From contig NC_091139.1 in NCBI RefSeq assembly GCF_041381155.1, forward strand, positions 7,998,383-8,062,382: a DNA stretch of 64,000 nucleotides, given 5' to 3'. Under the pieces are notes generated by a model. That model saw only the letters and a program-made list of their open reading frames with translations, had not been told where the DNA came from and made no database searches. The translations under genes and the position numbers were made by a program. Each line of letters begins with the position of its first letter. The stretch's first letter is position 1. The DNA comes from Argopecten irradians. Taxonomy: Eukaryota; Mollusca; Bivalvia; Pectinida; Pectinidae. Below are positions 1 through 57,685 of the stretch, piece after piece.

Positions 1-103
1 AATTAATATAACCTTCATGCTATCCCCAGCACAGGTTTATGACAACATGTATACAAAATTGATATACTCATTCACTAACACATATTTCAATCACCCTGTC
101 TAC

Positions 104-184
104 CAATAGTATCATAAACATTACGTGTAGTGTCTATTTTTGTTGAATCCAATCCGTCATAATTGCCGTCGTGGTTTGGCATGT
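104..184 (-). CDS. Locus A: cytoplasmic exon with ITAM-like motif
   Basis: This 81-bp exon has acceptor CAG at its high end and donor GTAGAC at its low end. It reads MPNHDGNYDGL, then DSTKIDTTRNVYDTIG. The two tyrosines form YxxL-x11-YxxI, which fits the ITAM spacing reported for Draper-type engulfment receptors. Locus C has an exon of the same length and frame (51,584-51,664). The remaining tail lies beyond base 1. The reading frame is chosen from paralogue agreement. Membrane signalling is inferred. Confidence 0.72.
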
Positions 185-395: not shown

Positions 396-450
396 GATAC
401 GCATGTAATTCAGAGGAAGGTGGTGGAGTTCGATTCCCTCTGCGCGCATT
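396..450 (-). CDS. Locus A: proline-rich cytoplasmic exon
   Basis: The 55-bp exon has a TTTTAG acceptor and a GTAAGT donor. In the frame that joins the ITAM exon (phase 1 out) it reads RTPPPSSELHAY, against RTPPPSTELHTY in locus C. Entry must then be phase 0, while the transmembrane exon leaves in phase 2, so an unseen small exon or a different donor is needed between them. PPP could bind SH3 domains, but this is a guess. Confidence 0.6.
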
Positions 451-1134: not shown

Positions 1135-1235
1135 CTCAGGCAGTATACGATTAATCCTATATTACAACTGATGGAGACAGCAAGAAGGCTGCCAACCACG
1201 GCGTATCCGGTGGTGCATTGTGTGTGGGTTGTTTG
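1135..1235 (-). CDS. Locus A: transmembrane exon
   Basis: The 101-bp exon enters in phase 0 and leaves in phase 2 at GTAAGT. It encodes a short Thr-rich stalk followed by a hydrophobic helix, GYAVVGSLLAVSISCNIGLI, ending VYCLR. Exon length and phase equal those of the locus C exon at 53,942-54,042, so this is the single-pass anchor of a type I receptor. An alternative donor GTATAC inside the exon (exon end 1,149) would leave in phase 0 and match the next exon. Confidence 0.75.
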
Positions 1236-1522: not shown

Positions 1523-1569
1523 TTCTTCACCATGACTGATCTTTGTTGTGGCTCCTGGCTGTTTCTGTG
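1523..1569 (-). CDS. Locus A: juxtamembrane exon
   Basis: The 47-bp exon has an AACAG acceptor and a GTAAGT donor. It joins the preceding EGF exon in phase 1 and reads QKQPGATTKISHGEE, leaving in phase 0 into the transmembrane exon. Locus C has the same length and layout (QKQTGTTPNNHHCEK). It is the extracellular stalk between the last EGF unit and the membrane. Confidence 0.65.
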
Positions 1570-2316: not shown

Positions 2317-2448
2317 CTTGACTACAAGAGTTTCCAATCCACCCCAAACATCCGGGTACTTTACATACCCCAGTCCTCCCGTCACAGTCAGAGTTAGCAC
2401 AATGACAGGTCTGGTTACAGTCTCGTCCGAATGTGTGGTTGGTACAGG
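2317..2448 (-). CDS. Locus A: EGF-repeat exon
   Basis: The 132-bp phase 1-1 exon begins ACTNHTFGRDCNQTCHCANS and has eight cysteines in the spacing of the laminin/MEGF-type EGF repeat. It is one codon shorter than the usual 135-bp unit (KVPGCLGWIGNSC). Acceptor TATAG and donor GTAAGG are both present. It is the last EGF unit before the stalk exon. Confidence 0.75.
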
Positions 2449-2774
2449 CTATATTGCATAAAAAGGACATTATGACATATATATCACTAAGAACAAAGTT
2501 AAGGAGTTGTATTTGATGATAGAGCTAAACAAGATTAGATATCAAAATTATGTTTTGTAAATTTCTATGTTGTTACGAAAAATATTCATGCTATTTCTTT
2601 TCTGTTTCCATTTTTGAATAGTAGCAATATTTAAAGTATTTTATCAATTACTTTGTAACAGGTCTATTCACGAGGACAGCTAGTTAATCACACTTGTTGA
2701 CTTGTATAGTATGTGAATTTAATTATGGTGCGCATACCTATCATATATATATACTATATAAATATCGAACTTAC

Positions 2775-2909
2775 GTTGGTTACAAGCTTGGCCTGACCAG
2801 CCCGCTTCACATCCCATAGTAATACATGCTCCATTTATATGATTGCAACCGGGGATTCTACAGTGACACTCTTCTGAACATCCTGGTCCAAACAATCCAG
2901 TTTGACATC
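2775..2909 (-). CDS. Locus A: EGF exon, EECHC subtype
   Basis: This 135-bp phase 1-1 exon includes the segment FGPGCSEECHCRIPGCNHIN. Its CHCRIPGCNHIN core differs from the CHCANSDCDGRTG core of the other units. The same subtype is found at 54,872-55,006 (locus C) and, in a further variant, at 25,252-25,386 (locus B), so it marks an old, position-specific EGF unit near the membrane end. Confidence 0.78.
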
Positions 2910-3049
2910 CTTCAAGTAAAATATTTTGTTTCACAGTTCTAAAAAATACAGCACACAAACACTTTTAAATGTATCGTCTTTCTTATGCTCAATAATCGAT
3001 ATATTGGAATAAACCAATTTCATTTCTTATATTACAAAAAAAACGTTAC

Positions 3050-3185
3050 CTTGACTACATGTGCGTCCTATCCATCCTTCCATACATCCTGGTACTTTAC
3101 ATTTACCAATCCTCCTGTCACAGTCAGAGTTAGCACAATGGCAGGTCTGGTTACAGTCTCGTCCGAATAGTGTGGTAGTTGCAGG
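3050..3185 (-). pseudogene. Locus A: EGF exon with a 1-base insertion
   Basis: The unit resembles the standard EGF exon over its full length, with donor GTAACG and acceptor ACAG. It is 136 bp, one base more than the usual 135, because of an extra base near its N-terminal HTFGR motif, which shifts the frame. It is either a decayed exon or a consensus error. Many locus A units carry similar single-base changes. Confidence 0.55.
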
Positions 3186-3254
3186 CTGTTTTTGATATAA
3201 ACAAGTATGTGCGTCAATTCAGGACAATATTGCTGAGAATAACCGAAAAACAAA

Positions 3255-3578
3255 TGTCTATGGGTCCTCCCATCCTTCAATACTCCAACCAGGGTTAGCT
3301 TTATTGAAATCAGGCGCATTTTGCACTAAAATATCCGGAAATTCTAACTGCATTATCAAAATGTGATATTTTGAACCTAAATCTCAATATGAATTTCCAA
3401 ATTGATATTATGGTTATCAAGGAATATATTACTGTCAGAAAACATTTTTACTTTTGAAATTCATAATTAGCCCCAGCCAATCAGCGGACGGGTTAAAATT
3501 CTATCCTGGGCTCAATCTTGTATACACAGGGGCCATTTCGAAGGTCTTTTTTTATTTAGTTGGTTGATCCCTATAAAA
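3255..3578. repeat. Dispersed repeat, copy 1
   Basis: About 300 bp closely matches 54,150-54,470 in the same orientation, from the shared start AACCAGGGT to CCCTATAA. The two copies sit in different introns, so this is an interspersed element rather than part of the gene duplication. No coding capacity and no clear terminal inverted repeats were seen. Confidence 0.75.
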
Positions 3579-3579
3579 A

Positions 3580-3665
3580 TACCCCAGTCACCCGTTCTAC
3601 GTCACAATTAGTAATATCACAATGGCAAGTATGTGTACAGTTTTAGCCGAATGTCCAATTATCTA
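3580..3665 (-). pseudogene. Locus A: EGF exon relic
   Basis: A fragment of the EGF exon (the region matching the CHCANSDCDGRTG core and FGRD start) abuts the right edge of the dispersed repeat. The C-terminal part of the unit is not visible next to it, so the unit is truncated. It is heavily substituted and not expected to be spliced. Confidence 0.5.
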
Positions 3666-3699
3666 CAGTGTAGAGTCAGTAGTTACATCTGACTTTCAT

Positions 3700-4700
3700 T
3701 TTTAATATCTTAACCATTATGCAATAGTGGTATAGTATATTGTGTAAACATCAGAGACGCCTTATTATTTCAAAGACACATGTTTTTCGTGGTGTCATTA
3801 GCATCATTCCATTGAAGATAAAAACTGTCTGTCTTATAATATGGAACAAGTGCAAGGTTTATATTCAAAAAACAGCTAAAATTGCAGTTTATAATTTTTT
3901 CTTAAAAGATGAATAAGACAAATTTAAAATGATATAAAAATTACTCTTTATTGCAGTCTTAATTCTGTCTATAGTATTCGTTTAAATGAAATTGAAAATA
4001 TTGACCTCACTGACTGCTTTATGAATTTGGGTAGTAGCTACAAATAAATCTAAAGTATTCGACAAAACTACCATAAGTTTTCGGCTATTAATATATAACA
4101 TACGAGATATCATAGCAGAAATAAAAAAAATGCTTTTGATTAACTTCTACATCAGATAACCGCTGGCACAAATTAGTAACAAAAGGGGACTTCTGTTATT
4201 ACAATTTAGAGTAACTTAAAGGTATATGTGCCATTACTAAGCGAAAACGTTTACATTTTTTTGAAAAGCAAAAGGTTTGATGAATTAAGCAGTGAAAATC
4301 AGGCAACATGGCATTAATTACACTATAAAATTATTGTTTTTATGCCTTTTCGATGACAATATCCCTTGTTACCATTAACAATAGCACTGTCAAAATGTTA
4401 AATGACAAATGAAACTGTAGACTGTAACTTTGCTTGATGGTCTGGCCGTATGTGTTCATTTTACTGTCCTATTGTGTATATGTAAATATTATGACTTTCA
4501 GCTTTTATTTCTACTTGTAAAATTAAAACACCATTCATTTTTAGTATTGTAATCCTCAAAATGTTGGTAACTATTTGTGGTGAATAACATATTAACAGCT
4601 CTTCTTGATTCTTGGATGAAAATTATGGCACAAATAATTTTAAAAATCTAAGTGTTGTATACTCACGATTACTGTTGAAGCCATATTTTATCATGTTAAA
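3700..4700. other. Intron without recognised features
   Basis: About 1 kb of AT-rich intron of locus A. I see no exon-like segment, terminal repeats or tandem structure on either strand. Confidence 0.5.
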
Positions 4701-4754
4701 ATTATTATTGCAACACAATTCAATGTTGTTAAAAAAGAACACTTTATTCGTTAC

Positions 4755-4889
4755 CTTCACTACATGTGTCTCCCTTCCATCCTTCCGTACATCCGGGTAC
4801 TATACATGCACCAGTCCTCCCGTCACAGTCAGAGTTAGCACTATGACAGGTCTGGGTACAGTCTCGTCCGAATGTGTGGTTATCACACG
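4755..4889 (-). CDS. Locus A: EGF exon with a Cys-to-Ser change
   Basis: This open 135-bp phase 1-1 exon reads ACDNHTFGRDCTQTCHSANS at its start and GCTEGWKGDTCSE at its end. The usual CHC is CHS, so one of the eight cysteines is lost and its partner may be unpaired. Acceptor ACAG and donor GTAACG are intact. Confidence 0.72.
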
Positions 4890-5259
4890 CTGTAATGAAA
4901 AACAATCGTCACAAAATGAAAAATAAAAAGAACTGGATTTGGAAATTATACAGTTAGATTATATAAAATGAATGTTCGTTCCACACGGGATGGTATGAAA
5001 TGAGAATTTAAAACTAGTTAATTCATTTATCCTTTCCCCATAATTGATGAGTATCAAAATATATAATTTAAGCATACAGATTATGTAAATAAAATACATT
5101 GACGGAATCATTAGTTATTCGGAGAAATATGAAATAGAAATCGTTGTGTGATAAAGTTTGAATTGCCACATCATTGAGAATTAGAAACGTGTTTTGTGAC
5201 AAAATTTGACATTATTGACTTTTCTTTTGAGCTGAATATAGGACAAACCAAACAAGTAC

Positions 5260-5394
5260 CTCGACTACACGTGTCTTTCTTCCATCCTTCCGTACATCCG
5301 GGTACCTTACATACCCCATTCCTCCCGTCACAGTCAGAGTTAGCACAATGACAGATCTGGGTACAGTCTCGTCCGAATGTGTGGTTGGTACACG
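5260..5394 (-). CDS. Locus A: EGF exon
   Basis: This open 135-bp phase 1-1 exon has all eight cysteines. It starts ACTNHTFGRDCTQICHCANS and ends GCTEGWKKDTCSR. Acceptor ACAG and donor GTACTT are present. Flanking introns are of ordinary length here, unlike the 81-bp introns of the locus B array. Confidence 0.75.
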
Positions 5395-7325: not shown

Positions 7326-7839
7326 TCTGAGTTAAACGAAATACAATTGTTTACGCATTAAAAGGCGACAACTCTTGCTACAAAATAATCAAACGATGAC
7401 AATAAGTCATTGTTCGCGTCTATCAATTTTGTGTCGTTCCATTTATAAAATGCCACATTTGTCTAATTATGTATTATCTATGAGTAATGTGTTAATTTGA
7501 CTTTTGAGAGTCGTGATGTTGGGGCAAAAACATGAAGAACCTTATTTCTCCTTGGTAAATGCATTTCACAATTACATTAGTTTGAGTTGTGCAAGTCATT
7601 TACCAATATCTGTAGAGTAATGCAAATCAGCAGCCCTGTCTATTTAAAATGTTTTTAAATTATTGTTATTTAAGAAAATAACAACTTATATCGTTTTGAA
7701 GGACAATCGTTTTATATTATAGATTTTAATAGGAACCACCCAAACTAATTCAAATATTATTTAATAGTTACCTGTGTAAATAGTCCGTTACCCTAGATCT
7801 AACAAGGATTTGTCTTCAAAGATTGAATACCACCCATAC

Positions 7840-8104
7840 CTCCACCTGTACTTCGCACAGCTCTATGATTGCAGTCGTTGTGTTTTAATACATAACATCC
7901 CTGTGGGTCCATAGTCAGCAGGCCGCTTGTTGTAGAATATAACATATCGACCGGATACAGGACAGTACACTGACTGGATATAAGATGGTAGACCAGGTCC
8001 GTGGTCATGGTAACACAGGTGGGCTGTTCGCAATACTTGGTGGATATTGTGAGCAATAGAACTGTTTGATACGTAAAGGTAAAATCCGGACATTCGGAAA
8101 GGAT
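7840..8104 (-). pseudogene. Locus A: F-type lectin C-terminal half exon
   Basis: This is the second half of an F-type (fucolectin, FTP) domain. The open part runs from DPFRMSGFYLYVSNSSIAHN through LCYHDHGPGLPSYIQ to GRYVIFYNKRPADYGP. The expected end, IIELCEVQVE, is in another frame because of small insertions before it, giving 265 bp against 267 in locus B. Acceptor TTCAG and donor GTATGG are present. It may be damaged or mis-called. Confidence 0.6.
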
Positions 8105-8250
8105 CTGAAGAGCCAGTAAACAGACAGACTTTATACAAAATCAGACTGCTTTCATTATCAAAAACAAGGAATGAATACAGTATTAGGCATGTTTAATATA
8201 TTGAGTGTAAATATATTAAATGCTTATTTCACAATGTATTATATTTAATG

Positions 8251-9252
8251 ATCTGCTCTGGTAAAAAGACTTTTTCGCGATAACCTATTTTTTTTTCTTT
8301 ATATTGATTTTGTGAAACTAGGTGATCATTACCCAAACTTTAAAAAATGGAATAATAAAGTATTTTGGGTGGTATGATCCTATTATGAAATCAAAGACGG
8401 TTTTTGACGGGCAAATGCGTTTTTACCGGAATGTCCTGTGTTGCTCAATACACATGAAATGATAAAGACTAATACTTTCCTGATGGTTGTCTGCATAATG
8501 TATGAAATCTCGATACATTGACCCTATACCAATGTTTTCTGTAAGAAAACAATATTATCACGCAGTTAACCCATTTTTCGGCTCAGTATTGCAGTATATC
8601 TTAAGCCATTTCCCCTAAACTTTGTGGATGTACATCGCCTGGTTTTTTTCATACAAATTCAACGCCTTACAGAAACAAACTTTCTGTCTGATGATGAACC
8701 ATTTTCTGAAACTTTGCAGTTCAAATTAAAAAAACGTTGCTCTTTTTAAAACCAACATGAACATAGGGGTCAGTGTGTTTGATTTTTTATTCCGTTACAA
8801 AATTTGCAATTTTTTTAGCATTTCTTCGTAAAAATTCAAATTTATTTAATCTCACTAAAATGCAAAAAGAAAAGTCCAATCGCTTATAATATAACACTTA
8901 AATGCTTTAAGATTTTCTTCCCAGTGAACCTTGAAAAGATTAACAGCAAAAATGAACTTAGATGTAAAACTTTCGTCGCACAGGCGTGAAAGTGAAAATT
9001 GTTGTAGTAAAAAAGGTTGAAATGTCATCTGTTCTACAACGTGCAAGAAACGCACTTTTTCAATAAATTGTCCATCAAAATTGGTCATTTAAAATTCGTT
9101 TATCAAAAAAAATCTATAAAAACGAATAGAAGTTTATTTTTCTTAGATATTTTGTTTATGGCAAATTACTACACATAGAGACACATAAAATATCTTTGGT
9201 TAATGTTGAAACGAGACTCTTCAACGAGACTGAAAACCTCACCAGAGCAGAT
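8251..9252. mobile_element. Possible TIR element, about 1 kb
   Basis: The segment is bounded by inverted 12-base ends, ATCTGCTCTGGT on the left and its complement on the right. It lies in the locus A intron between the two lectin half-exons. No transposase was recognised inside. No clear target duplication was identified, so the boundaries are tentative. Confidence 0.45.
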
Positions 9253-9685
9253 TCTTAATTCCAAATTGATTGCTATCTCAAAATTACATATAAATGAGGC
9301 ACTGTTCGTCACATGCGTTGTAACGCTACCTCTTTCGGAATAGATTATGAGGGGTTAGTTTTTAAATAAGTGTACACAAGAATTCGTTTTATTAGTCTGT
9401 TTTGTATAATGTTTACAATGTACTAATGAGAGAGCTTACATATTTCTCTCTAAGGCAGGAAAATTGTAACTCTTGAGCAGTTACTTGTCCCTTTCAGTTA
9501 CAGCAAAAAAAAAAAAATACGGACAGTCTAAAACCGGAACCAATTTATCATATGTAGTAGAAATAATCTCAAAACCCAAAATAATATTACTTTTCAAATT
9601 AGCACTTGCCAATCAAAGTAACAAATAATTCATATGTATTTATATCACTTTATTAAGAGTAACATTTATGTTACAAATACATGTA

Positions 9686-10360
9686 ACGTGACGCTACCCA
9701 ATTTGGAACGCTTCCCAAAATGGAACACTTTTAAAATATGTGATACAGAATTTTCAGTTTACAATCTAAACTAACGATAATTATCATGAACAAAAATTTA
9801 CGTGCTGATTTAAATATCTGTGACAATTTTAAATATATAACATTTTGTTTCCAGTTGACTTATTATCTGTATTTTGAAAATGAAAATAATGATAGTTTTG
9901 AAAACTCTCAGGGAAACTGAGGTCGTGAAAATGAAAATAATGAAATTTTGAAAAAACACATATGTTTTAAATAAGAAAAAACGATTGCTGAATGGAAACA
10001 TTTTTTGGAAATTGAAAGAGATGTGACATGAATAAACGAAAAAAATGTTTGAACTTTCTTAATTGAATTCAAACATTTAATATCTTGTCTGGACATTTTT
10101 TTAATAAAACTTTATTTCGGGAGGTTGTTCCATTTTGGGTCATAAAACCGCCTGAAAACACAGGGCTCTGGACAGGGCATGCTTCCATGCTCTTTATTTC
10201 TAAATATATGCACTACTGACAAGTAAACAAATCATGAAATTAAAAATATAAAGCATATTATTTGTGAAATATTAAAGAAAAAAATCTAGATTCAAACTCA
10301 AGTATTTTTTTGTTTTACAATTATCTTCCAAAAATGTGCTCAATTTGGGTAGCGTCACGT
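9686..10360. mobile_element. TA-flanked MITE, complete copy
   Basis: The element has terminal inverted repeats ACGTGACGCTACCC, each flanked by TA, as expected for Tc1/mariner-type insertion. A second inner inverted pair (cccaaaatggaac and its complement) lies near the ends. The interior of about 650 bp has no recognised gene. A partial second copy of the right end is at 33,581-33,741. Confidence 0.78.
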
Positions 10361-10442
10361 TATACACATAATCTATCAGTGCTATTACATGACTCTGTCT
10401 TCATTCGTAATATGGTTATATATAACTTTGTAGACAGTAACA

Positions 10443-10690
10443 TTAATGTACTTTACACAGCTGTCTGTACACGATATTAATAGACTGTATCCATTGGACA
10501 CTACCGAGATCTACTTCCCACCAGGCACCTCCGGATGTCTATTTCATATGGCATCTGTGTGTGAACAACTCCCTGGTTCTGGTATTACACCCTTTGTTAT
10601 AACACCATCTACAGACTTGTCTCGGTCCAAGCACACATAGTTCGATTTTTTTCCATGTATAGAGCTTTGTTTATGGTGGGTTTACCGTGC
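10443..10690 (-). pseudogene. Locus A: F-type lectin N-terminal half exon, degraded
   Basis: Alignable by eye to the locus B exon at 42,594-42,809: the GKPT start, VDGVI, the SCTHTD-like region and the WW-VDLG region are all visible in order. They fall in different frames with stops between them. It is the N-terminal partner of the half domain at 7,840-8,104. The decay is worse than in that exon. Confidence 0.6.
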
Positions 10691-13114: not shown

Positions 13115-13395
13115 CAAACGCTCGTGGTTCCACCACCAAAACAGCTTTCCCCTGCCCATCCCAGACTGGACATCCGTCCTCCCAGACACCCACCCGAATC
13201 AGATATCACTGGCCTCATCCCCGTCACTATCGAACATTGGAGCCTACAGGATCAGGATAGCCCCATCCCACCATTGTCTGACCAGTCCCTTGACGTCACA
13301 TTGTCCAGTTTTCTGGGTCACAGCCACCAGTCATTCATGTGACAGGTACACGCCCACAGTATATATCCAAACTGACCAACGGGACATCCTGTGTC
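13115..13395 (-). pseudogene. Locus A: two-EGF exon relic
   Basis: Collinear with the locus B exon at 43,454-43,693 (GCPFGQFGYNC through CQSGWSGQSC). The matching motifs are present but split by small insertions, so no frame crosses it. Its place upstream of the lectin half-exons repeats the locus B exon order and shows that A and B share ancestry. Confidence 0.6.
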
Positions 13396-26705: not shown

Positions 26706-26993
26706 CTCACACGGTGTAAAATGGATAAACGGCAAAATGATATCACGTTTGCTGCCAGTAATCATCTAATTTGCCATTTATTTACGAATGTATTGATTGG
26801 TGCAGGTCTTACACTACCAAGGGAGTACAAGTTGTAGAATAACAGACACCAGGGGGAGGATGACATACTTGTTTATACCCATGTCAATAGTTATTGGTTT
26901 AGGAAAACACCATATATTCCATAGCTGCATGTCTATACAGTACATTTTCAATATATTCAAATGCCCACTGTTACATTATTGATATTTCCATAC

Positions 26994-27128
26994 CTCGACT
27001 ACACGTGTCTCCTGTCCATCCATCCGTACATCCAGGTACTTTACATACCCCAGTCCTTCTCTCACAGTCATAGTTAGCACAATGACAGGTCTGGTTACAG
27101 TCTCGTCCGAATGTGTGATTGTTACAGA
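26994..27128 (-). CDS. Locus B: EGF exon (array edge)
   Basis: This open 135-bp phase 1-1 exon starts VCNNHTFGRDCNQTCHCANY and ends GCTDGWTGDTCSR, with all eight cysteines. It is more diverged than the units of the array core, as expected at an array edge. Donor GTATGG and acceptor ACAG are present. Confidence 0.78.
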
Positions 27129-27208
27129 CTGTAAAGAAAACATAACATTAATTGGGAAAACTTTGGTACACACATGATACAATTAGATAAAGATGAATGC
27201 ATTGTTAC

Positions 27209-27343
27209 CTTGACTACATGTTCGGCCCTCCCATCCCTCCATACATCCCAATACTTTACATACACCAGTCCTCCCGTCACAGTCAGAGTTAGCACAATGA
27301 CAGGTCTGGTAACAGTCTCGTCCGAATGTGTGATTGGTACAGG
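27209..27343 (-). CDS. Locus B: EGF exon
   Basis: This open 135-bp phase 1-1 exon starts ACTNHTFGRDCYQTCHCANS and includes GVCKVLGCMEGWEGRTCSQ. Splice sites are intact. Neighbouring introns are about 80 bp and nearly the same as those of the array core. Confidence 0.8.
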
Positions 27344-27424
27344 CTGTAAACAAAACATTACATTAATTGGGAGAACTCGTACTTACAAACATGATACAAT
27401 TAGATAAAGATGAATGCATTGTTA

Positions 27425-27910
27425 CCTTGACTACATGTTCGTTCCCTCCCATCCCTGCATACATCCTCAATACTTTAGCATACACCAGTCCCTTCCGTCA
27501 CAGTCAGAGTTAGCACAATGACAGGTCTGGTTACAGTCTTGTCCGAATGTGTGATTGGTACACGGCTGTAAACAAAACATTACATTAATTGGGAGATGAG
27601 TAAAAATTAGCGTAAACGATAATGCAATTGTTTACCTTGATTACATGTTCGTCCCTCCCATCCATCGGTACACAAACATGCACCAGTCCCCTGGTCCCGT
27701 ACAATTAACACAAAGACAGATAAAGATGAATGCATTGGTTACCATTGATTACATGTTCGTTCCCTCCTTTTGACATACATGTTCGTCCCTCCCATCCCTC
27801 CATACATCCGGGTACTTTACATGCACCAGTCCTTCCGTCACAGTCAGAGTTAGCACAATGACAGGTCTGGTTACAGTCTCGTCCGAATGTGTGATTGGTA
27901 CAGGCTGTAA
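27425..27910 (-). pseudogene. Locus B: three disturbed EGF units
   Basis: The unit at 27,425-27,568 has several 1-base insertions. The one near 27,635-27,720 is truncated and rearranged. The one at about 27,770-27,904 has an intact EGF start and core but no normal donor where GTAACA should be. Rearranged copies of array sequence lie between them. These may be an unequal-exchange scar or a local assembly fault. Confidence 0.5.
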
Positions 27911-27985
27911 ACAAAACATTACATTAATTGGGAGAACTCGTGCTACAAACATGATACAATTAGATAAAGATGAATGCATTGTTAC

Positions 27986-28119
27986 CTTGACTACATGTTC
28001 GTCCCTCCCATCCCTCCATACATCCGGGTACTTTACATGCACCAGTCCTTCCGTCACAGTCAGAGTTAGCACAATGACAGGTCTGGTTACAGTCTCGTCC
28101 GAATGTGTGATTGGTACAG
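27986..28119 (-). CDS. Locus B: EGF exon with altered acceptor
   Basis: The body of the unit is standard (HTFGRDCNQTCHC to GWEGRTCSQ), with donor GTAACA. At the 5' edge TTTACAGCC has become TTTACAAGC, which moves the AG by one base and would make the exon 134 bp and out of frame. The unit would then be skipped or would break the protein. Confidence 0.5.
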
Positions 28120-28264
28120 CTTGTAAACAAAAACATTAGCATTAACTGGGATCAACTTTGGTAATACATTACAATTAGATATGATTGAATGCATTGACTA
28201 CATTGTTTGTCACTCGTACTACAAACATGATACAATTAGATAAAGATGAATGCATTGTTACCTG

Positions 28265-28403
28265 ATACTTGACTACAGTGTTCGTCCATCCCATCCCTCC
28301 ATACATCCGGGTACTTTACATGCACCAGTCCTCCCGTCACAGTCAGAGTAAGCACAATGACAGGACTGGGCACAGTATCGTCCGAATGTGTGATTGGTAC
28401 AGA
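28265..28403 (-). pseudogene. Locus B: EGF unit with small insertions
   Basis: It contains the EGF core and a donor GTAACA preceded by extra bases, plus a 1-base insertion near GRTC, so the frame is lost. The preceding intron is also rearranged. Confidence 0.5.
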
Positions 28404-28483
28404 CTCTAAACAAAACATTACATTAATTGGGAAAACTTTGGTACACACATGATACAATTAGATAAAGATGAATGCATTGTTAC

Positions 28484-28618
28484 CTTGACTACATGTTCGT
28501 CCCTCCCATCCCTCCATACATCCGGGTACTTTACATGCACCAGTCCTTCCGTCACAGTCAGAGTTAGCACAATGACAGGTCTGGTTACAGTCTCGTCCGA
28601 ATGTGTGATTGGTACAGG
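28484..28618 (-). CDS. Locus B: EGF exon, array core unit 1
   Basis: This perfect 135-bp phase 1-1 exon starts ACTNHTFGRDCNQTCHCANS and ends GCMEGWEGRTCSQ. It has eight cysteines, as in MEGF10/Draper-type repeats, acceptor TTTACAG and donor GTAACA. Symmetric phase means that gain or loss of whole units keeps the frame. Confidence 0.88.
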
Positions 28619-28699
28619 CTGTAAACAAAACATTACATTAATTGGGAGAACTCGTACTACAAACATGATACAATTAGATAAAGATGAATGCATTGTTAC

Positions 28700-28834
28700 C
28701 TTGACTACATGTTCGTCCATCCCATCCCTCCATACATCCGGGTACTTTACATGCACCAGTCCTTCCGTCACAGTCAGAGTTAGCACAATGACAGGTCTGG
28801 TTACAGTCTCGTCCGAATGTGTGATTGGTACAGG
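28700..28834 (-). CDS. Locus B: EGF exon, array core unit 2
   Basis: As core unit 1 but with GWDGRTC in place of GWEGRTC, the second member of the 432-bp dimer. Splice sites and all eight cysteines are intact. Confidence 0.88.
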
Positions 28835-28915
28835 CTGTAAACAAAACATTACATTAATTGGGAGAACTCGTGCTACAAACATGATACAATTAGATAAAGA
28901 TGAATGCATTGTTAC

Positions 28916-29050
28916 CTTGACTACATGTTCGTCCCTCCCATCCCTCCATACATCCGGGTACTTTACATGCACCAGTCCTTCCGTCACAGTCAGAGTTAGC
29001 ACAATGACAGGTCTGGTTACAGTCTCGTCCGAATGTGTGATTGGTACAGG
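28916..29050 (-). CDS. Locus B: EGF exon, array core unit 3
   Basis: GWEGRTC type, nearly identical to core unit 1 including its intron. Open, 135 bp, phase 1-1. Confidence 0.88.
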
Positions 29051-29131
29051 CTGTAAACAAAACATTACATTAATTGGGAGAACTCGTACTACAAACATGA
29101 TACAATTAGATAAAGATGAATGCATTGTTAC

Positions 29132-29266
29132 CTTGACTACATGTTCGTCCATCCCATCCCTCCATACATCCGGGTACTTTACATGCACCAGTCCTCCCGT
29201 CACAGTCAGAGTTAGCACAATGACAGGTCTGGTTACAGTCTCGTCCGAATGTGTGATTGGTACAGG
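29132..29266 (-). CDS. Locus B: EGF exon, array core unit 4
   Basis: GWDGRTC type, nearly identical to core unit 2. Open, 135 bp, phase 1-1. Above this unit the sequence quality appears to drop. Confidence 0.88.
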
Positions 29267-29346
29267 CTGTAAACAAAACATTACATTAATTGGGAGAACT
29301 TTGCTACAAACATGATACAATTAGATAAAGATGAATGCATTGTTAC

Positions 29347-35782: not shown

Positions 35783-35863
35783 CTGTAAACAAAACATTAC
35801 ATTCATTGAGAGAACTCGTGCTACAAACATGATACAATTAGATAAAGATGACTGCATTGTTAC

Positions 35864-35998: not shown

Positions 35999-36079
35999 CT
36001 GTAAACAAAACATTACATTAATTGGGAGAGCTCGTGCTACAAACATGATACAATTAGATAAAGATGAATGCATTGTTAC

Positions 36080-36646: not shown

Positions 36647-36649
36647 CTG

Positions 36650-40843: not shown

Positions 40844-41569
40844 CTGTAAAGACAGATTGAAATGAGAAAGAGAAAAAACATCAATAAAAAAAATTAAACA
40901 ATGATGAGATGTAAAACAAAATAAAACACGACGACTAAATATAAAAAAGTCAGTTTCATTCTTAATTTTAGGTTTAAACATTATTGTTATCTCAGGACCT
41001 GTAGCCACACAAGGCATACACAATGTATTAAGGATCTAAGAACAGAAAATGACAAGAGCACTAGATTTAATGTCATGTATATGTTGTGTACCACCGTTAC
41101 TACTAACGTCAATTCAAAATTATAATGGCCATCTAACGTATTCAATGAATTACGATTTGCATTACAAAAACTGTATTTATTATCAATCAATGGTCGTATA
41201 ACGAACTATAGAAAGATAAGATAATTTTGTTTGATTGTAGAACAGCCAAATTCCTGTTGATTGTTCTGACAAGAAATCAGTCAATCTCGGATCTCAGACG
41301 TGACAGCGCCTCTACCAACTGTCCCAAAAGAGTATGTTCCGTCAAAAAAGGATAGCTACAGAGCTGATTAAGGTTAGCTATTCTATTCATACAGGGGTCG
41401 ATTTCATCCGCAAAGTGCTCGAAATCAATATTCATTAGAATTCATATATAAATTTTGGTAAATATATTGGTAATATTAACTGATTTTAAACTGTCGTGTA
41501 AGGTTAATTGTATTTAGTATTTTGCCTCGATTAGTATTAAAGGTAGGTTTCGCCCAACACCATATATAC

Positions 41570-41836
41570 CTCCGAGCACCTGTACTTCACAGAGCTCTAT
41601 AACTGCGGACGTTTTGATATAATATTTAACATCCTTGGGTTCATAGTCAGCAGGCCGTTTGTTGTAGAATATAACATATCGACCAGATACAGGACAGGAC
41701 AGTGACTGGATATAGGATGGTAGCCCGGGTCCGTGGTCATGGTAACACAGGTGAGCCTTACTCAATACTTGGTAAATATTGTGAGCAACTGAACTGTTTG
41801 ATACGTACAGGTAAAATCCGGACATTCGAAAGTTGT
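41570..41836 (-). CDS. Locus B: F-type lectin 2, C-terminal half
   Basis: This open 267-bp exon joins the 42,594 exon in phase 1 (Tyr codon across the junction). It reads NFRMSGFYLYVSNSSVAHNI, LCYHDHGPGLPSYIQSLSCP and IELCEVQVLG, the usual end of the fucolectin fold. The RxDCC-type sugar-binding stretch is replaced by YRQLYNFR, so the two arginines remain but the aspartate and paired cysteines do not. Fucose binding is therefore uncertain. Acceptor TTTTAG, donor GTATAT. Confidence 0.85.
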
Positions 41837-42593
41837 CTAAAATACAAAATGATATTTGATAAATTCTCAAGATGACAAAAGCAAACCAAACATATATGTA
41901 ATTAATAAAATATAAAATAGTGATTATTAGAATGATTCATTAAGACGGTTGACAACAAATGTATTTCAGAAATATGAATCAGACTAAAATCAGTATGTGC
42001 TGCATCGTGGAATGTGTTTTCAGATGTTATTATTATGATTGTTAAAATAATTTGAATTCCGTTTGATATAGATTTGTCACACAACTTAAGCAGGAATTAT
42101 GCAAAAAAATTGCTCATAGTTCTTGTTATCATGTTATAATTTTTAAGGATGACTACATAACGACAATTTTTTGTGCATTTGGTGTATTTACTCATATGTA
42201 TAGTGACCTTGGCCTCATAGACAATGGTGTCCACGATGAATGAGACATTTCCTTTGGTAGCATTATATACATATGTTCATCTCTTTTTGACGTATGTTAA
42301 TTGCTCGTGGTATTAATGTCTCAGTTGGCTGCCTTCACAGCTGCTCTGTGGCTGGAATTTCATACAGAACGATGGCATAATTCATACCCTTTACGAGTAA
42401 AATTTTCCCACTACCGGTGCGTTTCTTTGCTTAATTTATCCACAGTAATATTCAGTACTGTAGACTGTAGCTGCGTTTGTGTTTTTGTGTGTTAGCAGAC
42501 TGTTAAAATTAGTTTAGTTTATGTTAGTTTATTGTTTGTTAGTAAATAGTCGGCATATATATTCCCTATGTTAACGTTCCTACAAGTACTTAC

Positions 42594-42809
42594 ACAGCTG
42601 TCGGTATACAATGTTAATTGTCCGTATCAATTGGACGGTCCCGAGATCTACTTGCCACCAGGCCTCCGGATGTCTCCCATTTGGATCTGTGTGAGTACAA
42701 CTTCCGGGAGGTTCAAAATCCTTTGATATAACCCCATCGACAGCCTTATATGCTCCATATATACTATAAGTTGTACTCTGTCGGGTGGGTTTACCATATG
42801 CAAGATTTC
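42594..42809 (-). CDS. Locus B: F-type lectin 2, N-terminal half
   Basis: This open 216-bp phase 1-1 exon reads NLAYGKPTRQSTTYSIYGAY, KAVDGVISKDF, SCTHTDPNGRHPEAWWQVDL and INIVYRQL. The KAVDG, CTHT and WW-VDLG motifs are diagnostic of F-type lectins. Acceptor TTGCAG, donor GTAAGT. It follows the two-EGF exon and pairs with 41,570-41,836. Confidence 0.87.
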
Positions 42810-43693: not shown

Positions 43694-44341
43694 CTGTGAT
43701 AAAAAAATAGACGTTGTCTTACATATATATATAAAGGTGATCGAAAAAGGTTGTAGGATTAAAGCCATTTGCACAGAAATAACTAATGACCAATATTCAG
43801 CTTTCATAGTTATCGTTACTATGGTAATATGACTCTTATGTTTGTTACTACTTTCGAATTGAAGCTCCTGTGTATACACGTTTTAGCTTAGAATTTAATT
43901 TGCTGTGGCAAGTCGATGTTGAAGATTCGAATTAAAGTTGTTTTGTAATAGAGTAATTATCCATCATTCATTGGCATAAGTTATGAGACTCAGAATGAAA
44001 TTCAGGTTAAAAATACATTTGTTATTTAGATAATTGATGAATAAAACAATAGATGTTCAGAATTTTTTTAATGTAAAATGCACTTTATTTAAATGGGTCT
44101 CAAAAGGGAACATTACAGAATGGCTTCTCTCTCTTTTATGTAAATTATTGTTTTGTATGAGATATTAGACTGGTTATAAAACATGATAAAGGGACTTTAA
44201 TCAATAGGTCTACTCCAGTACTTTGATATTACAAAGTTCTGACATTGTGGTCTATGGTAATTCAATAAGTTATTTTGTCTGTTTATAAGTAAATAAAAGA
44301 AGGTAGAAATATATTCCATGAATATCAAATGATACACTAAC

Positions 44342-44578
44342 CATAGACTTGAACCTCACACAGTTCAATAAGTGCGTCTTCTCTGTTTGATCTAATGTTG
44401 TAGAACACGACGTACCGTCCTTTTACATGACACTGCCGGGTCTGGTTAAATGTTGGTAACCCAGAACCGTTGTCATGGTAACATAGATGTCCGTCTTGTT
44501 CATTAATAGAGCCATCAGGTCGAGTCATGTCGGTGTTGTTTGTAACGTACAGACTGTAGCCTTGTAGACGACGTGCAT
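44342..44578 (-). CDS. Locus B: F-type lectin 1, C-terminal half
   Basis: The 237-bp phase 1-1 exon reads DARRLQGYSLYVTNN, GHLCYHDNGSGLPTFNQTRQ, CHVKGRYVVFYNIRSN and IELCEVQVYG. With the previous exon it gives YRHHDARRL at the place of the canonical R-x-D-x4-R sugar site, so a modified site with Arg and Asp still present. Acceptor TACAG, donor GTTAGT. Confidence 0.88.
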
Positions 44579-45096
44579 CTGTAAATATAATAGTAAACTG
44601 ATTCATTAGGAAGAAAATCGTGAATATAATGCTTCATTAATTTCATCGTCGTTGTCTGCCATATAACGTCACATCCATTTAAAAGGTTTAAATTAAGATA
44701 TGTTAGATGTTGGTAGGTACAAAATTTGTAAAGGGTAAAGTAGCGGGTTACTGAATTCTTAAATAAAACAATACATTGATGGATATATCCATGCTGGGGA
44801 AGTTTTTTTCAGGAAATTGCGATGTTGAAAGTTCGTTATGAACTATATATACTCTTTCGTACTTCAGAATCGCAAAGAATGGCCAAAAAGATAGAACATC
44901 GCTATCAGTCTTAAATATATATAGATGTGCCTTAAAATAAAAAAAGGTTGTCCTAGAATTCAATGAAACCGCAATTAGGTGGAGGGGAACAGCTCATTTC
45001 ATTTGGAAATAAATTAAATCACATTTGTTATATTATGTGATAAGATCAAACGATTGATGTATCTATCTTTACCATTTTCAGAGCTGCACTACTAAC

Positions 45097-45303
45097 CATG
45101 ATGTCTGTACGTGATGTTGATCATCTGTATCCAATACACCTGTCCTAGGTCTACTTTCCACCAGGCCTGGTGGTGGCCGACACCTGTGTGGGAGCAGTGT
45201 CCACTCTTTAACTGAGTCGTGAAGAAACCGTCCACTGCTCTACCGGCGTTGTTATTCCCATATGTTGAGCTTTGTGTTGCTGGATTGTTTAGAGCCAAGT
45301 CTC
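45097..45303 (-). CDS. Locus B: F-type lectin 1, N-terminal half
   Basis: The 207-bp phase 1-1 exon joins the signal-peptide exon to give SSRDLALNNPATQSSTYG, then AGRAVDGFF, GHCSHTGVGHHQAWWKVDLG and INITYRHH. NPATQSS, AVDG, CSHT and WWKVDLG are F-type lectin hallmarks. Acceptor ATATAG, donor GTTAGT. Confidence 0.9.
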
Positions 45304-50344: not shown

Positions 50345-51580
50345 CATTTACTCAATTCAGTTTTCACTGTTCAACATGGAGGACCATAAATATCTAGATC
50401 AGTATATGCAGTAGTGATGGTTTTTGGAAATAAATTTGAAGTGATTTGGGTAAAAAATCTTTTCCAATGCAGCACAGGCCTAAGAGCGAAGTTTAGAAGA
50501 AAAAATACAACAAAATAATCCCCAATGTTTTGGATACATACACAAAATAGTAAAATTGATTTCCAAAAGAGTATGCTTTTTAAAGTAATCCTTGGGAATT
50601 ATTATCTTCTTGAAAAGTGTTGGGATGTAAATTTGTTTGATTGATGCCATTTCTATGGAATATGAAGCGATTTGGATATACAAAATATGGGGAAAATAAG
50701 CATGTCGAGCATCTGTAATTTCGTTTTGGTAGAAAATTCAGAATTTGTCTCATGGGATTCAATCTTCTCTCTTCTGGATTGGTTCAAGTGAATTCTTCTC
50801 TGGGTTATAGATACAGTGGCTGTGAAAGAACTGATAAAAATTATTTTGGAATGAAGCGATGAAAATTGTATACATATATATATGTTTATTGGTATTATGA
50901 AAATAAGTTTACAAATACATCACAACAACGTTGACAAGTACGTTGACAAGTACCTGGGTTAATCTATTATCCATCTTTGTCTAAACCTTAATCCTAAGCA
51001 ACTTAAGATTTACTGAAAGTATGTAGGTACTTCAAGAATTAATAACTAAATAGTTGATTGGGGGCAAAAAGAAAAACAACAATGTAATATAACATTATTT
51101 TAATCATACACTAACATGAAAAGCAAATGAACATTACAGACATGACATGATCTCTACATGATCAACGTCAACAGTCATATCTATATTGCACGATATAACA
51201 CAAAGAGGCTTAAATACACAACCTTCTACTTAAGATTCTCGTTACGTCATTATTTACTGACGTCAAGTCATGACGTCACAATATATTTCCAGTAAAATAA
51301 AAAACGCTCCAGATTATATAACACTATTGCCGGATACAAAAATATTACACGGGCAAAATCACCGGATATCAGGCAGATTATGAACTTTCAAAGAACATAT
51401 ATGCACTTGTGAAGTGTAAATACCAAAATTTCTTTAGGATACTCAGGCATGACACACTTCACGAAAACATTAGCACAAAAGTTATCATGGTTGATGCATT
51501 AGGCTACTTTTCAAATTAAGATTTACGGGTATAATATGTCGTCCATTCAACCATAGGTTCACAAAATAAATCGCTTCACT
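50345..51580. other. Intron of locus C
   Basis: No gene or structured repeat was recognised. The small frames near 50,500-50,760 have no family signature. Confidence 0.45.
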
Positions 51581-51583
51581 TAC

Positions 51584-51664
51584 CAAGGGTATCATAAACA
51601 TTACGTGTACTGCCTATTTTCCGTGAATCTAAGCCTTCATAGTTGTCCTCTACGCCTGGTATAT
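51584..51664 (-). CDS. Locus C: cytoplasmic exon with ITAM-like motif
   Basis: The 81-bp exon has acceptor TGCAG and donor GTAAGT. It reads IPGVEDNYEGL and then DSRKIGSTRNVYDTL. The motif is YxxL-x11-YxxL, as in locus A (104-184). Acidic residues precede each tyrosine, a favourable Src/Syk-type context. Length, phase and motif are conserved between paralogues. Confidence 0.75.
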
Positions 51665-52648: not shown

Positions 52649-52703
52649 GATAAGTATGTAGTTCAGTGGAAGGAGGTGGAGTTCGAGTTTTTCTTCCGCG
52701 CAT
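52649..52703 (-). CDS. Locus C: proline-rich cytoplasmic exon
   Basis: The 55-bp exon has acceptor TTCAAG and donor GTAAGT. It reads MRGRKTRTPPPSTELHTY, joining the ITAM exon in phase 1. The basic start suits the membrane-proximal face of a tail. As in locus A it does not fit the phase of the transmembrane exon when that exon ends at GTGAGT. Confidence 0.62.
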
Positions 52704-53941: not shown

Positions 53942-54042
53942 CTTATGCAGTGTACAATAAATCTCATATTACAGGCAACAGAGAACGCAAGAAAGCTGCT
54001 AAACACACCGTACACCGTGATGACGTTTGGGCAGGTTGGTTC
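53942..54042 (-). CDS. Locus C: transmembrane exon
   Basis: The 101-bp exon enters in phase 0 and reads EPTCPNVITVYGVFSSFLAF then SVACNMRFIVHCIR. The hydrophobic helix is interrupted by an arginine (NMRF), unlike locus A (NIGL). Donor GTGAGT leaves in phase 2. An inner donor GTACAC (exon end 53,956) would leave in phase 0. Confidence 0.72.
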
Positions 54043-54547: not shown

Positions 54548-54594
54548 TTTTTCACAATGGTGATTGTTTGGTGTGGTTCCTGTCTGCTTCTGCG
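54548..54594 (-). CDS. Locus C: juxtamembrane exon
   Basis: The 47-bp exon reads QKQTGTTPNNHHCEK with acceptor ATCAG and donor GTAAGT. It has the same length and phase as the locus A stalk exon. Confidence 0.65.
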
Positions 54595-54871: not shown

Positions 54872-55006
54872 GTTGGTCACAAGCTTTTCCTGACCAGCCC
54901 ACTTCACACCCCACGTTGTGACATGTTCCATTAATATGGTTACAGACGGGAATCCTACAGTGACACTCTTCTGTACAGTAAGGACCAAAACGTCTGTGTC
55001 GGCATT
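54872..55006 (-). CDS. Locus C: EGF exon, EECHC subtype
   Basis: This open 135-bp phase 1-1 exon reads RRFGPYCTEECHCRIPVCNH and GWSGKACDQ, with acceptor TGTAG and donor GTAGGT. It is the closest relative of 2,775-2,909. Unlike the next EGF exon it has no stop. Confidence 0.75.
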
Positions 55007-55162
55007 CTACAAATAAACCTTTAGTGACTAGATAATAAAAACACTTATGTTTAAATTTTGTCCTTGTTTATGGGAGTTCAATGAAACGTTATTATTTCCA
55101 ACACGGCTTCATAATTATTTCTAAAAACGTTTGCGTTTCTTATGGTAAACGTATAACGTTAC

Positions 55163-55297
55163 CTTGACTACATGTATGTCCCCTCCATCCCGCGTCACAC
55201 CCGGTTACATTACATATTCCAGTCTCGTCGTCACAGTCAGAGTTAGCACAATGACAGGTCTAGGCACAGTCTCGTCAGAATGTGTGGTTGGAACATG
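55163..55297 (-). pseudogene. Locus C: EGF exon with two stops
   Basis: A 135-bp unit with normal splice sites. The FGRD glycine codon is TGA and the CxQTC glutamine codon is TAG. The rest is standard (CHCANSDC to GWRGHTCSQ). Both changes are single substitutions, which argues for real decay rather than sequencing slips. Confidence 0.7.
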
Positions 55298-55309
55298 CTG
55301 TCGAATAGA

Positions 55310-56200
55310 GGGGCACATATGTATGTTAATGGATGTTATTGCCTCCAAAAGGACAGAACTGATCATGAACAAAGTAGTCCTTTAATGTTTTACAGAATAA
55401 AAATTATCATCATTACGCATGCACCTCTGTACTATAATCTCTTTCTAAAAAAGACCATTTTCCCTAAGTCCCAAAGAAGTAATTTTAACCAAAATCCAAC
55501 AACGATTATCACATTTTCAAGCCGGGACGCCCCTTTATCAACACGCATAATGCTATAGAATTTACAATAGAAGACGACGAAGAAAACAAATATCTCAAGT
55601 AGAAGACAATAAATAAGCTGAGGGTGAAGGCGGAATTCAGTAAGGTTTGGTCATCCTCGTCAAAAGAACGCTTTGAATGAAACCATAGAGATGTTTGAAA
55701 CATCTCGTGAAGTAACAAAAGTGGATTCGCCTAAGTCGTCACAGTTTTCAATGTAGTAATTCATTCATAAGAGACAAACAAAAATCTATAAACATTAAGT
55801 AAATTAATGAACGACAACAGTCAAGATCCGATTAGAATACTAGAAAATTAAAGAGATGTTGATATTAAAGAGAAAATATATAGAAAAAATATACAGATGA
55901 TAAAATCAATCACGACCGCAGATGATGATTATGTAGTAGTAAATTTAGAAGTCGAAATAAGGACCATGCAAAAGTATGCTTATCTTGAAACTGCTAATGT
56001 TACACTTGTGAATTTAGCAACTATACAGAACTGTTTATCCTCTTTGACCTACTTCGCTGCCATAAGAATCCATACTATATTTCGAAGCATAAATATTTAT
56101 TGTATTTGTTTGTAAAGTATTTATTACAATACATAATACCAGTAACAGCCGAGATTTAAAATGAAAAAGATTTTTTTTTCAAAAATGACGCAATGGTGAA
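55310..56200. other. Intron of locus C
   Basis: No feature recognised. A plus-strand frame at 55,897-56,115 has no family signature. Confidence 0.45.
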
Positions 56201-56206
56201 GATTAC

Positions 56207-56245
56207 CTTGGTCACAAGATTGGCCTTTCCAACCAGACGGGCATG
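56207..56245 (-). pseudogene. Locus C: half-EGF exon with lost acceptor
   Basis: It matches the 39-bp exon of locus B (CPSGWKGQSCDQ) with donor GTAATC, but the acceptor TTTACAG reads TTACAAC, so no AG precedes it. Confidence 0.6.
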
Positions 56246-56727
56246 TTGTAATACATCAAACATGTAAACACAAATCTATAAAAAGATTAAAAAGGGGGGA
56301 TTCTGAAATACAGTTGGTTTAAAATACCAACAAAACAAAATAGTGTTGTCCAGAGAAAATTAGTAGGTTTCAACATATGACTCGTCGTTAAATGCTTTGG
56401 TCCGACTTGTATAACCAGATTAGTGTATTCGCCTTATTCGCATGTATTCGTAATAAGCACCTTACTTTTTCTGAATTTATTATTTTATAATTCAGTGCTA
56501 TTTCTGTATATTTTACCAATACATCTTTGAAAGTTGTATTTATATGTGTCTGTCTCTATGGTATTTTGTGTTCTATACGTAAAACACAGATGTAATAAGA
56601 GTTCAATTATTGCCATTTTTAGCAAACATGTAGTCTCGATAATTAAAGTAGATACTGATAAAAACACTCAAATGACAACCTACATTCAGGTTCAGATGTG
56701 GAATTGATTAGTTTGTATCACACATAC

Positions 56728-56989
56728 CTCCGATCACCTGGACTTCACACAGTTCTACAACTGCGGACGTTTCGCTATATCATGTAACATTCCGAGGTTC
56801 ATTGTCAGCAGGCTGTTTGTTGTAGAATACAACATACTGACCAGATATAGGACATGAAAGTGACTGGATATAGGATGGTAGGCCGGGTCCGTGGTCATGG
56901 TGACACAGGTGGGCTGATCGCAATACTTGGTGAATGTTGTAAGCAACTGAACTGTTTGATACGTAAAAATCCAGACATTCGGAAAAGAT
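56728..56989 (-). pseudogene. Locus C: F-type lectin C-terminal half, broken
   Basis: Collinear with 41,570-41,836 (LCHHDHGPGLPSYIQSLSCP; QYVVFYNKQPADNEP; VELCEVQV). It is five bases shorter, with a frame break near its start and a TGA before the final strand. Splice sites are intact. Confidence 0.7.
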
Positions 56990-56999
56990 CTGAAATTAA

Positions 57000-57540
57000 A
57001 TTGAAAGTAACAAACAGATAACGCTCTAGGCCAATATCATAATTGAAAATATCTCAAAGCAAAAATAAGCTCTAGGTAGAATTCAATTTTATATTTTAAT
57101 CAAGAAAATTCATGCTAACCCATGTAGTGGAGCAGATAAATGCAGAAATATGACCGAATTGTGCACATTATGATAAAAGCATGACAACTCGCACAAATGA
57201 ATTTTAAGCCATAAGAATTAGTTTGGGCCTCTGAGCCATCGCGAATTTCTCTATGACGTCACTAGCGGCCATTTTGGAGATGGTCGCCATTTTTTTCAAA
57301 ACCACATTAAAGATAAATGGAAGCAATCTTTCTGAGTATTTTTTTTTTATTTTATTCAACTTAATTGATGTATGAATGAAAAATAAAATATTTGCAACGC
57401 TAATTGTTGAAAATTGACAGAATTTCAACAATTATTGAATTTCTATAACTGTGATCAGTATGTACATACCTGAACACGGTTTGTCACCTTGCATTTCCAG
57501 GCATGCACTTTCAGTATAAATTCATCTTTCACATATGAAC
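57000..57540. other. Intron of locus C
   Basis: No gene recognised. Confidence 0.45.
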
Positions 57541-57547
57541 TTACACA

Positions 57548-57685
57548 ATTGTGTGTACACGATGTTAATTGTCTGTATCTGTTGGAAGGACAACTCCCGT
57601 CCTAAATCTACTTCCCACCCAGGTAATAGGTGGAACTGGGTGACATTTCCAATTCCTGGATCCCTGTATAGAGTACAAAAACTTC
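57548..57685 (-). pseudogene. Locus C: F-type lectin N-terminal half, relic
   Basis: Only the second part of the exon is recognisable (the counterpart of the WW-VDLG and IN-VYRQ region), with frame breaks. The first part is lost or unrecognisable. No signal-peptide exon was found upstream for locus C. Confidence 0.5.

What the first reader, a model, noticed from the sequence alone, without database searches (positions are those of the whole stretch)
104..184. ITAM-like tail, YxxL-x11-YxxI
The tail exon of locus A carries NYDGL and VYDTI eleven residues apart, within the spacing reported for the Draper ITAM. With a lectin-EGF ectodomain this would be an activating receptor in a mollusc.
Basis: partly seen in the sequence, partly recalled or inferred. 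Interest (0 to 1): 0.75.

Follow-up and report, generated by a model that had tools for sequence, protein, structure and literature searches.

The report
ITAM-like tail on EGF-repeat receptor
A cell-surface receptor gene in this invertebrate-like DNA ends in a short tail with two signalling tyrosines spaced as in the fly clean-up receptor Draper, and a neighbouring copy keeps the same tail, so it probably passes an activating signal, although which splice form is made is still open.

Summary
Minus-strand exon 184..87 reads MPNHDGNYDGLDSTKIDTTRNVYDTIGRQGD-stop: YDGL-x11-YDTI. A paralogue 51 kb away (51664..51576) reads IPGVEDNYEGLDSRKIGSTRNVYDTLGK-stop; both tyrosines, both +3 residues and the x11 spacing are kept. 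These are the only two acidic-type tandem pairs in six frames (0.17 expected). The spacing equals that printed for Draper-I (YXXI-X11-YXXL). The tail is therefore probably used in at least one isoform. The lectin part is weaker: lectin exons beside A and B are decayed, intact ones lie about 40 kb upstream of A's TM exon, and the one checked lacks the fucose motif. Best reading: a type I EGF-repeat (perhaps lectin) receptor with a Draper-spaced, ITAM-like tail. Reviews already report ITAM/hemITAM receptors in oysters, so this is a variant, not a new kind. The boldest open idea is a tandem-acceptor switch between the ITAM tail and a frameshifted, ITIM-like tail.

The parts
87..184 (-). Tail exon of locus A to the stop codon: MPNHDGNYDGLDSTKIDTTRNVYDTIGRQGD*
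   Evidence: Direct reading; acceptor ttatttccag|AC
150..161 (-). First half-motif YDGL
105..116 (-). Second half-motif YDTI, 11 residues after the first
396..450 (-). Juxtamembrane exon of A; tandem acceptors: exon start 450 (55 nt, frame without ITAM) or 439 (44 nt, ITAM frame); donor ATC|gtaagt
1135..1235 (-). Transmembrane exon of A, phases 0-2: QTTHTQCTTGYAVVGSLLAVSISCNIGLIVYCLR
1523..1569 (-). Exon between EGF repeats and TM of A, phases 1-0
2317..5394 (-). Four EGF-like exons next to the A TM exon that are open with phases 1-1 (2448-2317, 2909-2775, 4889-4755, 5394-5260; the 4.9 kb one has lost a cysteine), plus a fifth copy near 3179-3048 that is out of frame from the usual acceptor
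   Evidence: tblastn; exon phases; Pfam EGF_STAB1-2 5.2e-10 on the four joined, below cut-off singly
7836..10618 (-). Decayed F5/8C lectin copy nearest to A (8099-7836 with a stop and indels; 10618-10448 with indels)
41568..42807 (-). Intact F5/8C lectin copy (42807-42592 plus 41825-41568)
   Evidence: Pfam F5_F8_type_C_2 1e-9, PDB FBP32 2.1e-13, on the two halves joined
44340..45301 (-). Second intact F5/8C lectin copy (45301-45104 plus 44567-44340)
   Evidence: Pfam F5_F8_type_C_2 3.4e-8 on the two halves joined
51576..51664 (-). Paralogous tail exon, locus B: IPGVEDNYEGLDSRKIGSTRNVYDTLGK*
   Evidence: tblastn 1.6e-14
52649..52703 (-). Juxtamembrane exon of B with the same tandem acceptors (exon start 52703 or 52692)
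53942..54042 (-). Transmembrane exon of B, phases 0-2
   Evidence: tblastn 1.4e-6
54548..54594 (-). Exon between EGF repeats and TM of B
54873..57619 (-). B ectodomain remains: open EGF 55004-54873, EGF with two stops 55298-55161, F5/8C half with a stop 56984-56724, decayed first half 57619-57539

Best explanation
Locus A is the 3' end of a gene for a type I membrane receptor with EGF/SREC-like repeats and possibly F5/8C lectin domains. Its 47-residue cytoplasmic tail (RGNRTPPPSSELHAYHMPNHDGNYDGLDSTKIDTTRNVYDTIGRQGD) carries one ITAM-like module with Draper-type spacing. Most likely working: ligand clustering lets a Src-family kinase phosphorylate both tyrosines; a tandem-SH2 kinase (Shark or Syk type) docks on the pair and signals towards engulfment or inflammation. 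Shown: motif, spacing, conservation in one paralogue, TM and EGF context, and a GT-AG splice route that puts it in frame. Inferred: use of that route, phosphorylation, kinase docking and outcome.
For: Both halves are acidic at +1 with L/I at +3, 11 residues apart, in two paralogues. They are the only such pairs in the window, far above chance. The four 3' exons are homologous and in the same order in A and B, with identical exon phases. The distal AG gives an open frame into the tail in both copies, and among the AGs I listed it is the only route shared by both. That frame puts arginines/lysines right after the TM and a shared TPPPS-[ST]-ELH-[AT]-Y segment. X11 equals the Draper-I ITAM, which binds Shark (PMC13148388 passage); Draper-I Y949F fails to rescue the wound response of draper mutants (PMC4503800 passages).
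Against: By eye the proximal acceptor (atatattttag in A, atatatttcaag in B) looks better than the distal one (gcgcgcag / gcgcggaag, no pyrimidine tract) and gives a different tail without the ITAM in both copies. The substitution test between A and B favours this frame only weakly: one-sided fractions 0.112 for the whole tail, 0.077 for the core, 0.141 for the ITAM alone; and a closed frame of the same exon is just as identical (17 of 28, with stops), so identity alone does not pick the frame. Only one paralogue was available, and its ectodomain exons carry stops. No RNA, no protein data, no external relative. YxxL/I pairs also fit endocytic sorting signals.
Confidence: 0.55

Rival explanations
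1. The tyrosines are YxxPhi endocytic sorting signals of a scavenger-type receptor, bound by the AP-2 adaptor, with little or no kinase signalling.
For: YDGL and YDTI, YEGL and YDTL fit YxxPhi (recalled consensus). EGF repeats of the window resemble scavenger receptor class F (weak PDB hit, E 0.0049) and the stabilin EGF model.
Against: Both motifs have an acidic residue at +1 and sit at exactly the Draper ITAM spacing in both paralogues; a sorting signal needs neither a pair nor a fixed spacing (recalled).
Confidence: 0.2
2. The exon is normally read in another frame (proximal acceptor), so that the receptor has a short tail without ITAM and the motif is a relic or chance.
For: Proximal AG looks stronger, and both copies stay open through the 55-nt exon, ending as RMRAEGIELHHLPLNYMRITCQTTTAIMTDWIQQK* (A) and RCAEEKLELHLLPLNYILIIYQA* (B).
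Against: In that frame the tail-exon peptides keep 13 of 28 residues and stop at different places in A and B, while the ITAM-frame peptides keep 17 of 28 with no stop; chance of the acidic pair is about 1e-4.
Confidence: 0.15
3. Locus A and B are decaying gene copies and neither makes a working receptor.
For: Lectin exons near A and B have stops and indels; one B EGF exon has two stops; on the A side an EGF-like fragment at 3660-3601 has a stop and the copy at 3179-3048 is out of frame from the usual acceptor.
Against: All four 3' exons of both copies keep open frames, phases and splice signals, and four EGF exons next to the A TM are open in phase. Decayed phase 1-1 exons could simply be skipped.
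Confidence: 0.1

Closest known systems
Draper-I (Drosophila; CED-1/MEGF10 family)
   Same: EGF-repeat ectodomain, single TM, tail ITAM with x11 spacing (YXXI-X11-YXXL in PMC13148388); Draper also has splice forms with an insertion in the ITAM (II) or without it through a frameshift (III).
   Different: Order here is YXXL-X11-YXXI (A) or YXXL-X11-YXXL (B). No NPxY in the tail exons seen and no EMI signature found by two patterns in the window; F5/8C lectin exons nearby instead.
Oyster hemITAM C-type lectins CgCLec-TM1 and CgCLec-HTM
   Same: Bivalve membrane lectins with a tyrosine motif reported to couple to Syk (PMC13027682, review passages).
   Different: C-type lectin domain and a half ITAM; here EGF repeats, F5/8C domains nearby and a two-tyrosine module.
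Oyster IgSF receptor CgIgIT2
   Same: A review ascribes a classic ITAM to this oyster receptor (PMC11999971 passages).
   Different: Five Ig domains. Two of the three papers it cites have titles that call the receptor or its signalling inhibitory, so the review's ITAM label should be treated with care.
Vertebrate canonical ITAMs (CD79, CD3, FcR gamma, DAP12; recalled)
   Same: YxxL/I pair, often with acidic +1 residues.
   Different: Canonical spacing is x6-8 (recalled); here x11.
SREC/stabilin-type EGF receptors
   Same: Four EGF exons joined match EGF_STAB1-2 (5.2e-10); another double EGF weakly matches SCARF1 (0.0049).
   Different: Their tails were not compared here; F5/8C domains are absent from them (recalled).

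Membership tests
ITAM (general) | Two Yxx[L/I] in one cytoplasmic tail | tested here: met
   (in the protein only if a route in the ITAM frame is spliced)
ITAM (canonical vertebrate) | Spacer of 6-8 residues (recalled) | tested here: not met
   Spacer is 11 in both copies
ITAM (Draper type) | Spacer of 11 residues | tested here: met
   Draper spacing from PMC13148388 passage
ITAM (any) | Phosphorylation by Src kinases and docking of Syk/Shark SH2 domains | not testable with these tools
   needs experiment
ITAM (any) | Motif in the translated frame | tested here: inconclusive
   Distal acceptor yes, proximal acceptor no, in both copies with the main tail acceptor
CED-1/Draper/MEGF10 | EMI domain at the N terminus | tested here: inconclusive
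   Two EMI-like patterns (recalled) absent in six frames; no profile scan of the whole window, and the gene's 5' end is not defined
CED-1/Draper/MEGF10 | NPxY in the tail | tested here: not met
   None in the tail exons of A or B; further exons of A outside the window not excluded
CED-1/Draper/MEGF10 | EGF repeats before a single TM | tested here: met
F-type lectin | Domain fold | tested here: met
   By sequence profile: F5_F8_type_C_2 above cut-off in 2 of 2 joined copies; the half-exons alone gave no family; FBP32 2.1e-13 for the one copy searched. No structure was predicted
F-type lectin | Fucose motif HX24RXDX4(R/K) | tested here: not met
   Copy 42807/41825 reads YRQLYNFRMSG across the exon junction (read by hand); motif from PMC5712786 passage. 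Only this one of two intact copies was checked

The most novel reading that the evidence does not exclude
The two AGs 11 nt apart, kept in both paralogues, are a built-in splice switch: the distal AG makes an activating ITAM tail, the proximal AG shifts the frame and makes a short tail whose LNYMRI/LNYILI fits an inhibitory ITIM (consensus recalled). One 11-nt choice would turn the same receptor from activating to inhibitory, a parallel to the ITAM, altered-ITAM and frameshift forms of Draper.
Probability: 0.12. Interest if true: 0.75.

Novelty: new variant of a known kind. Interest (0 to 1): 0.48.

Why it matters
If the tail signals, Draper-spaced ITAM signalling occurs on a receptor family built from EGF repeats and, possibly, F5/8C lectin domains, apparently outside the CED-1 family, in a tandemly duplicated locus. 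That would help date the ITAM-tandem-SH2 pairing and ask whether invertebrate families of duplicated recognition receptors plug into it. The tandem acceptor makes a clear test of whether ITAM use is switched by splicing.

Tried and rejected
Loose ITAM pattern as evidence: rejected, 45 seen against 29.9 expected. A hidden micro-exon between TM and juxtamembrane exon to repair the phase: none met my splice and frame criteria in A, four unconvincing candidates did in B, no A-B pair; weaker splice sites were not enumerated. Other acceptors of the juxtamembrane exon: A 493 (98 nt) and B 52731 (83 nt) have the right phase but, read by hand, run into in-frame stops. Other acceptors of the tail exon after the proximal route: in A the only one with the right phase (296) has stops before the tail; in B two weak AGs (51701 and 51647) would restore the ITAM frame without the distal AG, so B has more than one possible route, but A shares neither. 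Exon skipping: closed within nine codons after the TM in both. Substitution-pattern test: too little power, reported as such; for the juxtamembrane exon neither frame is favoured (fractions 0.23 and 0.46), and the TM exon shows no constraint (0.80). ITIM reading of the proximal frame: 2.6% of open shuffles of the A exon and 4-5% of synonymous resamplings give one by chance, so only weakly suggestive, and A and B are not independent. Outside relatives: none in phages, in PDB by the TM-tail at E up to 10, or in viral or GTDB contigs; a 20-mer hit in a viral contig (L001) reads STRNVYDTV but the rest of the frame looks unrelated, taken as chance. Literature: in the listings of 10 searches (lists capped at 20-25 rows) I saw no title on an F5/8C-EGF receptor with an ITAM; I read passages of some papers, no whole paper, and the library lacks most subscription journals. 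Draper primary papers were not held.

Full report
What is there. On the minus strand, exon 184..87 begins after ttatttccag and reads MPNHDGNYDGLDSTKIDTTRNVYDTIGRQGD followed by TGA. YDGL (161..150) and YDTI (116..105) are separated by 11 residues.

More than chance. In 64 kb of AT-rich DNA the loose pattern is common (45 seen, 29.9 expected), but with acidic +1 residues at both tyrosines only two places remain, against 0.17 expected (the largest of 60 simulations also had 2), and the two are homologous to each other. Shuffling each tail's residues gives the acidic pair in 8.5e-5 and 2.5e-4 of shuffles.

Paralogue. Locus B, 51664..51576, reads IPGVEDNYEGLDSRKIGSTRNVYDTLGK-stop (tblastn 1.6e-14); 17 aligned residues are identical (61% by the aligner; 17 of 28). 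Upstream, in the same order, both loci have a juxtamembrane exon, a 101-nt TM exon and a 47-nt exon before it; the four exons align at 69-82% nucleotide identity. The B ectodomain is damaged: one EGF exon with two stops and a lectin half with a stop, so B may be decaying; its 3' half is open.

Frame. The TM exon leaves two bases (phase 2) in both loci. The next exon, if begun at the T-rich acceptor, has 55 nt and leaves phase 0, which puts the tail exon in a frame that ends as ...LNYMRITCQTTTAIMTDWIQQK* (A) or ...LNYILIIYQA* (B). An AG 11 nt further on gives 44 nt and phase 1, and then both loci read through to the motif: CLRGNRTPPPSSELHAYHMPNHDGNYDGLDSTKIDTTRNVYDTIGRQGD* and CIRKTRTPPPSTELHTYHIPGVEDNYEGLDSRKIGSTRNVYDTLGK*. 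A one-base indel between A and B at this acceptor leaves both exon lengths equal. By eye the proximal acceptor is the stronger one, so this is unsettled. In B, but not in A, two other weak AGs before or inside the tail exon (51701, 51647) would bring the proximal route into the ITAM frame. The improbability of the conserved acidic pair argues that the ITAM frame is used in at least one isoform. In B the sequence after the motif (CTTG|GTAAGT) could also be a donor, in which case the tail would continue; the motif would be kept.

Selection. Between A and B the tail has 22 substitutions in 86 bases, at codon positions 4, 7 and 11 in the ITAM frame. Random placement of as many substitutions gives as few amino-acid changes in 11% of trials for the whole tail, 7.7% for the core and 14% for the ITAM alone. 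This leans towards the ITAM frame but is not significant with one pair, and a closed third frame shows the same 17 of 28 identity.

Ectodomain. Four EGF exons next to the A TM are open with phases 1-1; a fifth copy (3179-3048) is out of frame from its usual acceptor. The four joined match the stabilin EGF model (5.2e-10; single ones stay below the cut-off), and the double EGF at 43.6 kb weakly matches SCARF1 (0.0049). F5/8C lectin domains are clear at 45.3-44.3 and 42.8-41.6 kb when their half-exons are joined (Pfam 3.4e-8 and 1e-9; FBP32 2.1e-13 for the latter). The copies nearest to A (10.6-7.8 kb) and B (57.6-56.7 kb) are broken. So a lectin-EGF-TM-ITAM protein from A with intact lectin domains needs a gene of about 45 kb; tblastn found no other TM or tail exon of this kind in the window at E below 0.01, which fits, but linkage is inferred. 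In the one intact copy checked, the fucose motif HX24RXDX4(R/K) (PMC5712786 passage) is not met (YRQLYNFR).

Comparison. Draper-I's ITAM is given as YXXI-X11-YXXL and binds Shark; Draper-II has an insertion in it and Draper-III lacks it through a frameshift (PMC13148388, figure-legend passage). Draper-I Y949F fails to rescue macrophage recruitment to wounds though it rescues corpse processing (PMC4503800 passages). Vertebrate-like Syk homologues were found only in invertebrates with CARD-CC and Bcl10, while Shark does not follow that distribution (PMC5978004 passages). Oyster C-type lectins with hemITAM are reported to use Syk (PMC13027682 review passages). So activating tyrosine-motif receptors in molluscs are not new; I saw this architecture with x11 spacing in none of the listings of my ten searches.

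Limits. No genome, RNA or outside relative was available. That the organism is a bivalve rests on the look of the sequence and was not tested. Verdict: real, conserved in one paralogue, probably translated, plausibly a Draper-spaced ITAM; function untested.

Noticed in passing
396-450 and 52649-52703: Two AG acceptors 11 nt apart in both paralogues select between an ITAM frame and a frame with LxYxxI (ITIM-like) and an early stop.
   Followed up: partly
26992-31500 and 35649-36647: Two arrays of near-identical EGF exons (copies about 216 bp apart), the first fading into decayed copies with stops and frameshifts towards 31 kb.
   Followed up: no
62717-63181: Minus-strand ORF that looks like a separate short TM protein, downstream of a very weak F5/8C-like match (63878-63849, E 7.2); its end (DLHRLKSFITSVCRK) has no tyrosine and it matched no Pfam family.
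   Followed up: partly
41568-45301, 7836-10618, 56724-57619: Four sets of F5/8C lectin exons: two intact, two decayed; the decayed ones are those beside the two TM-tail ends.
   Followed up: partly
13141-13386: Decayed copy of the double EGF exon at 43467-43691, suggesting a broken tandem duplicate of the lectin-EGF unit.
   Followed up: no
51576-51590: In B the motif is followed by CTTG|GTAAGTGA, a good splice donor overlapping the stop codon; the tail might continue in a further exon.
   Followed up: no
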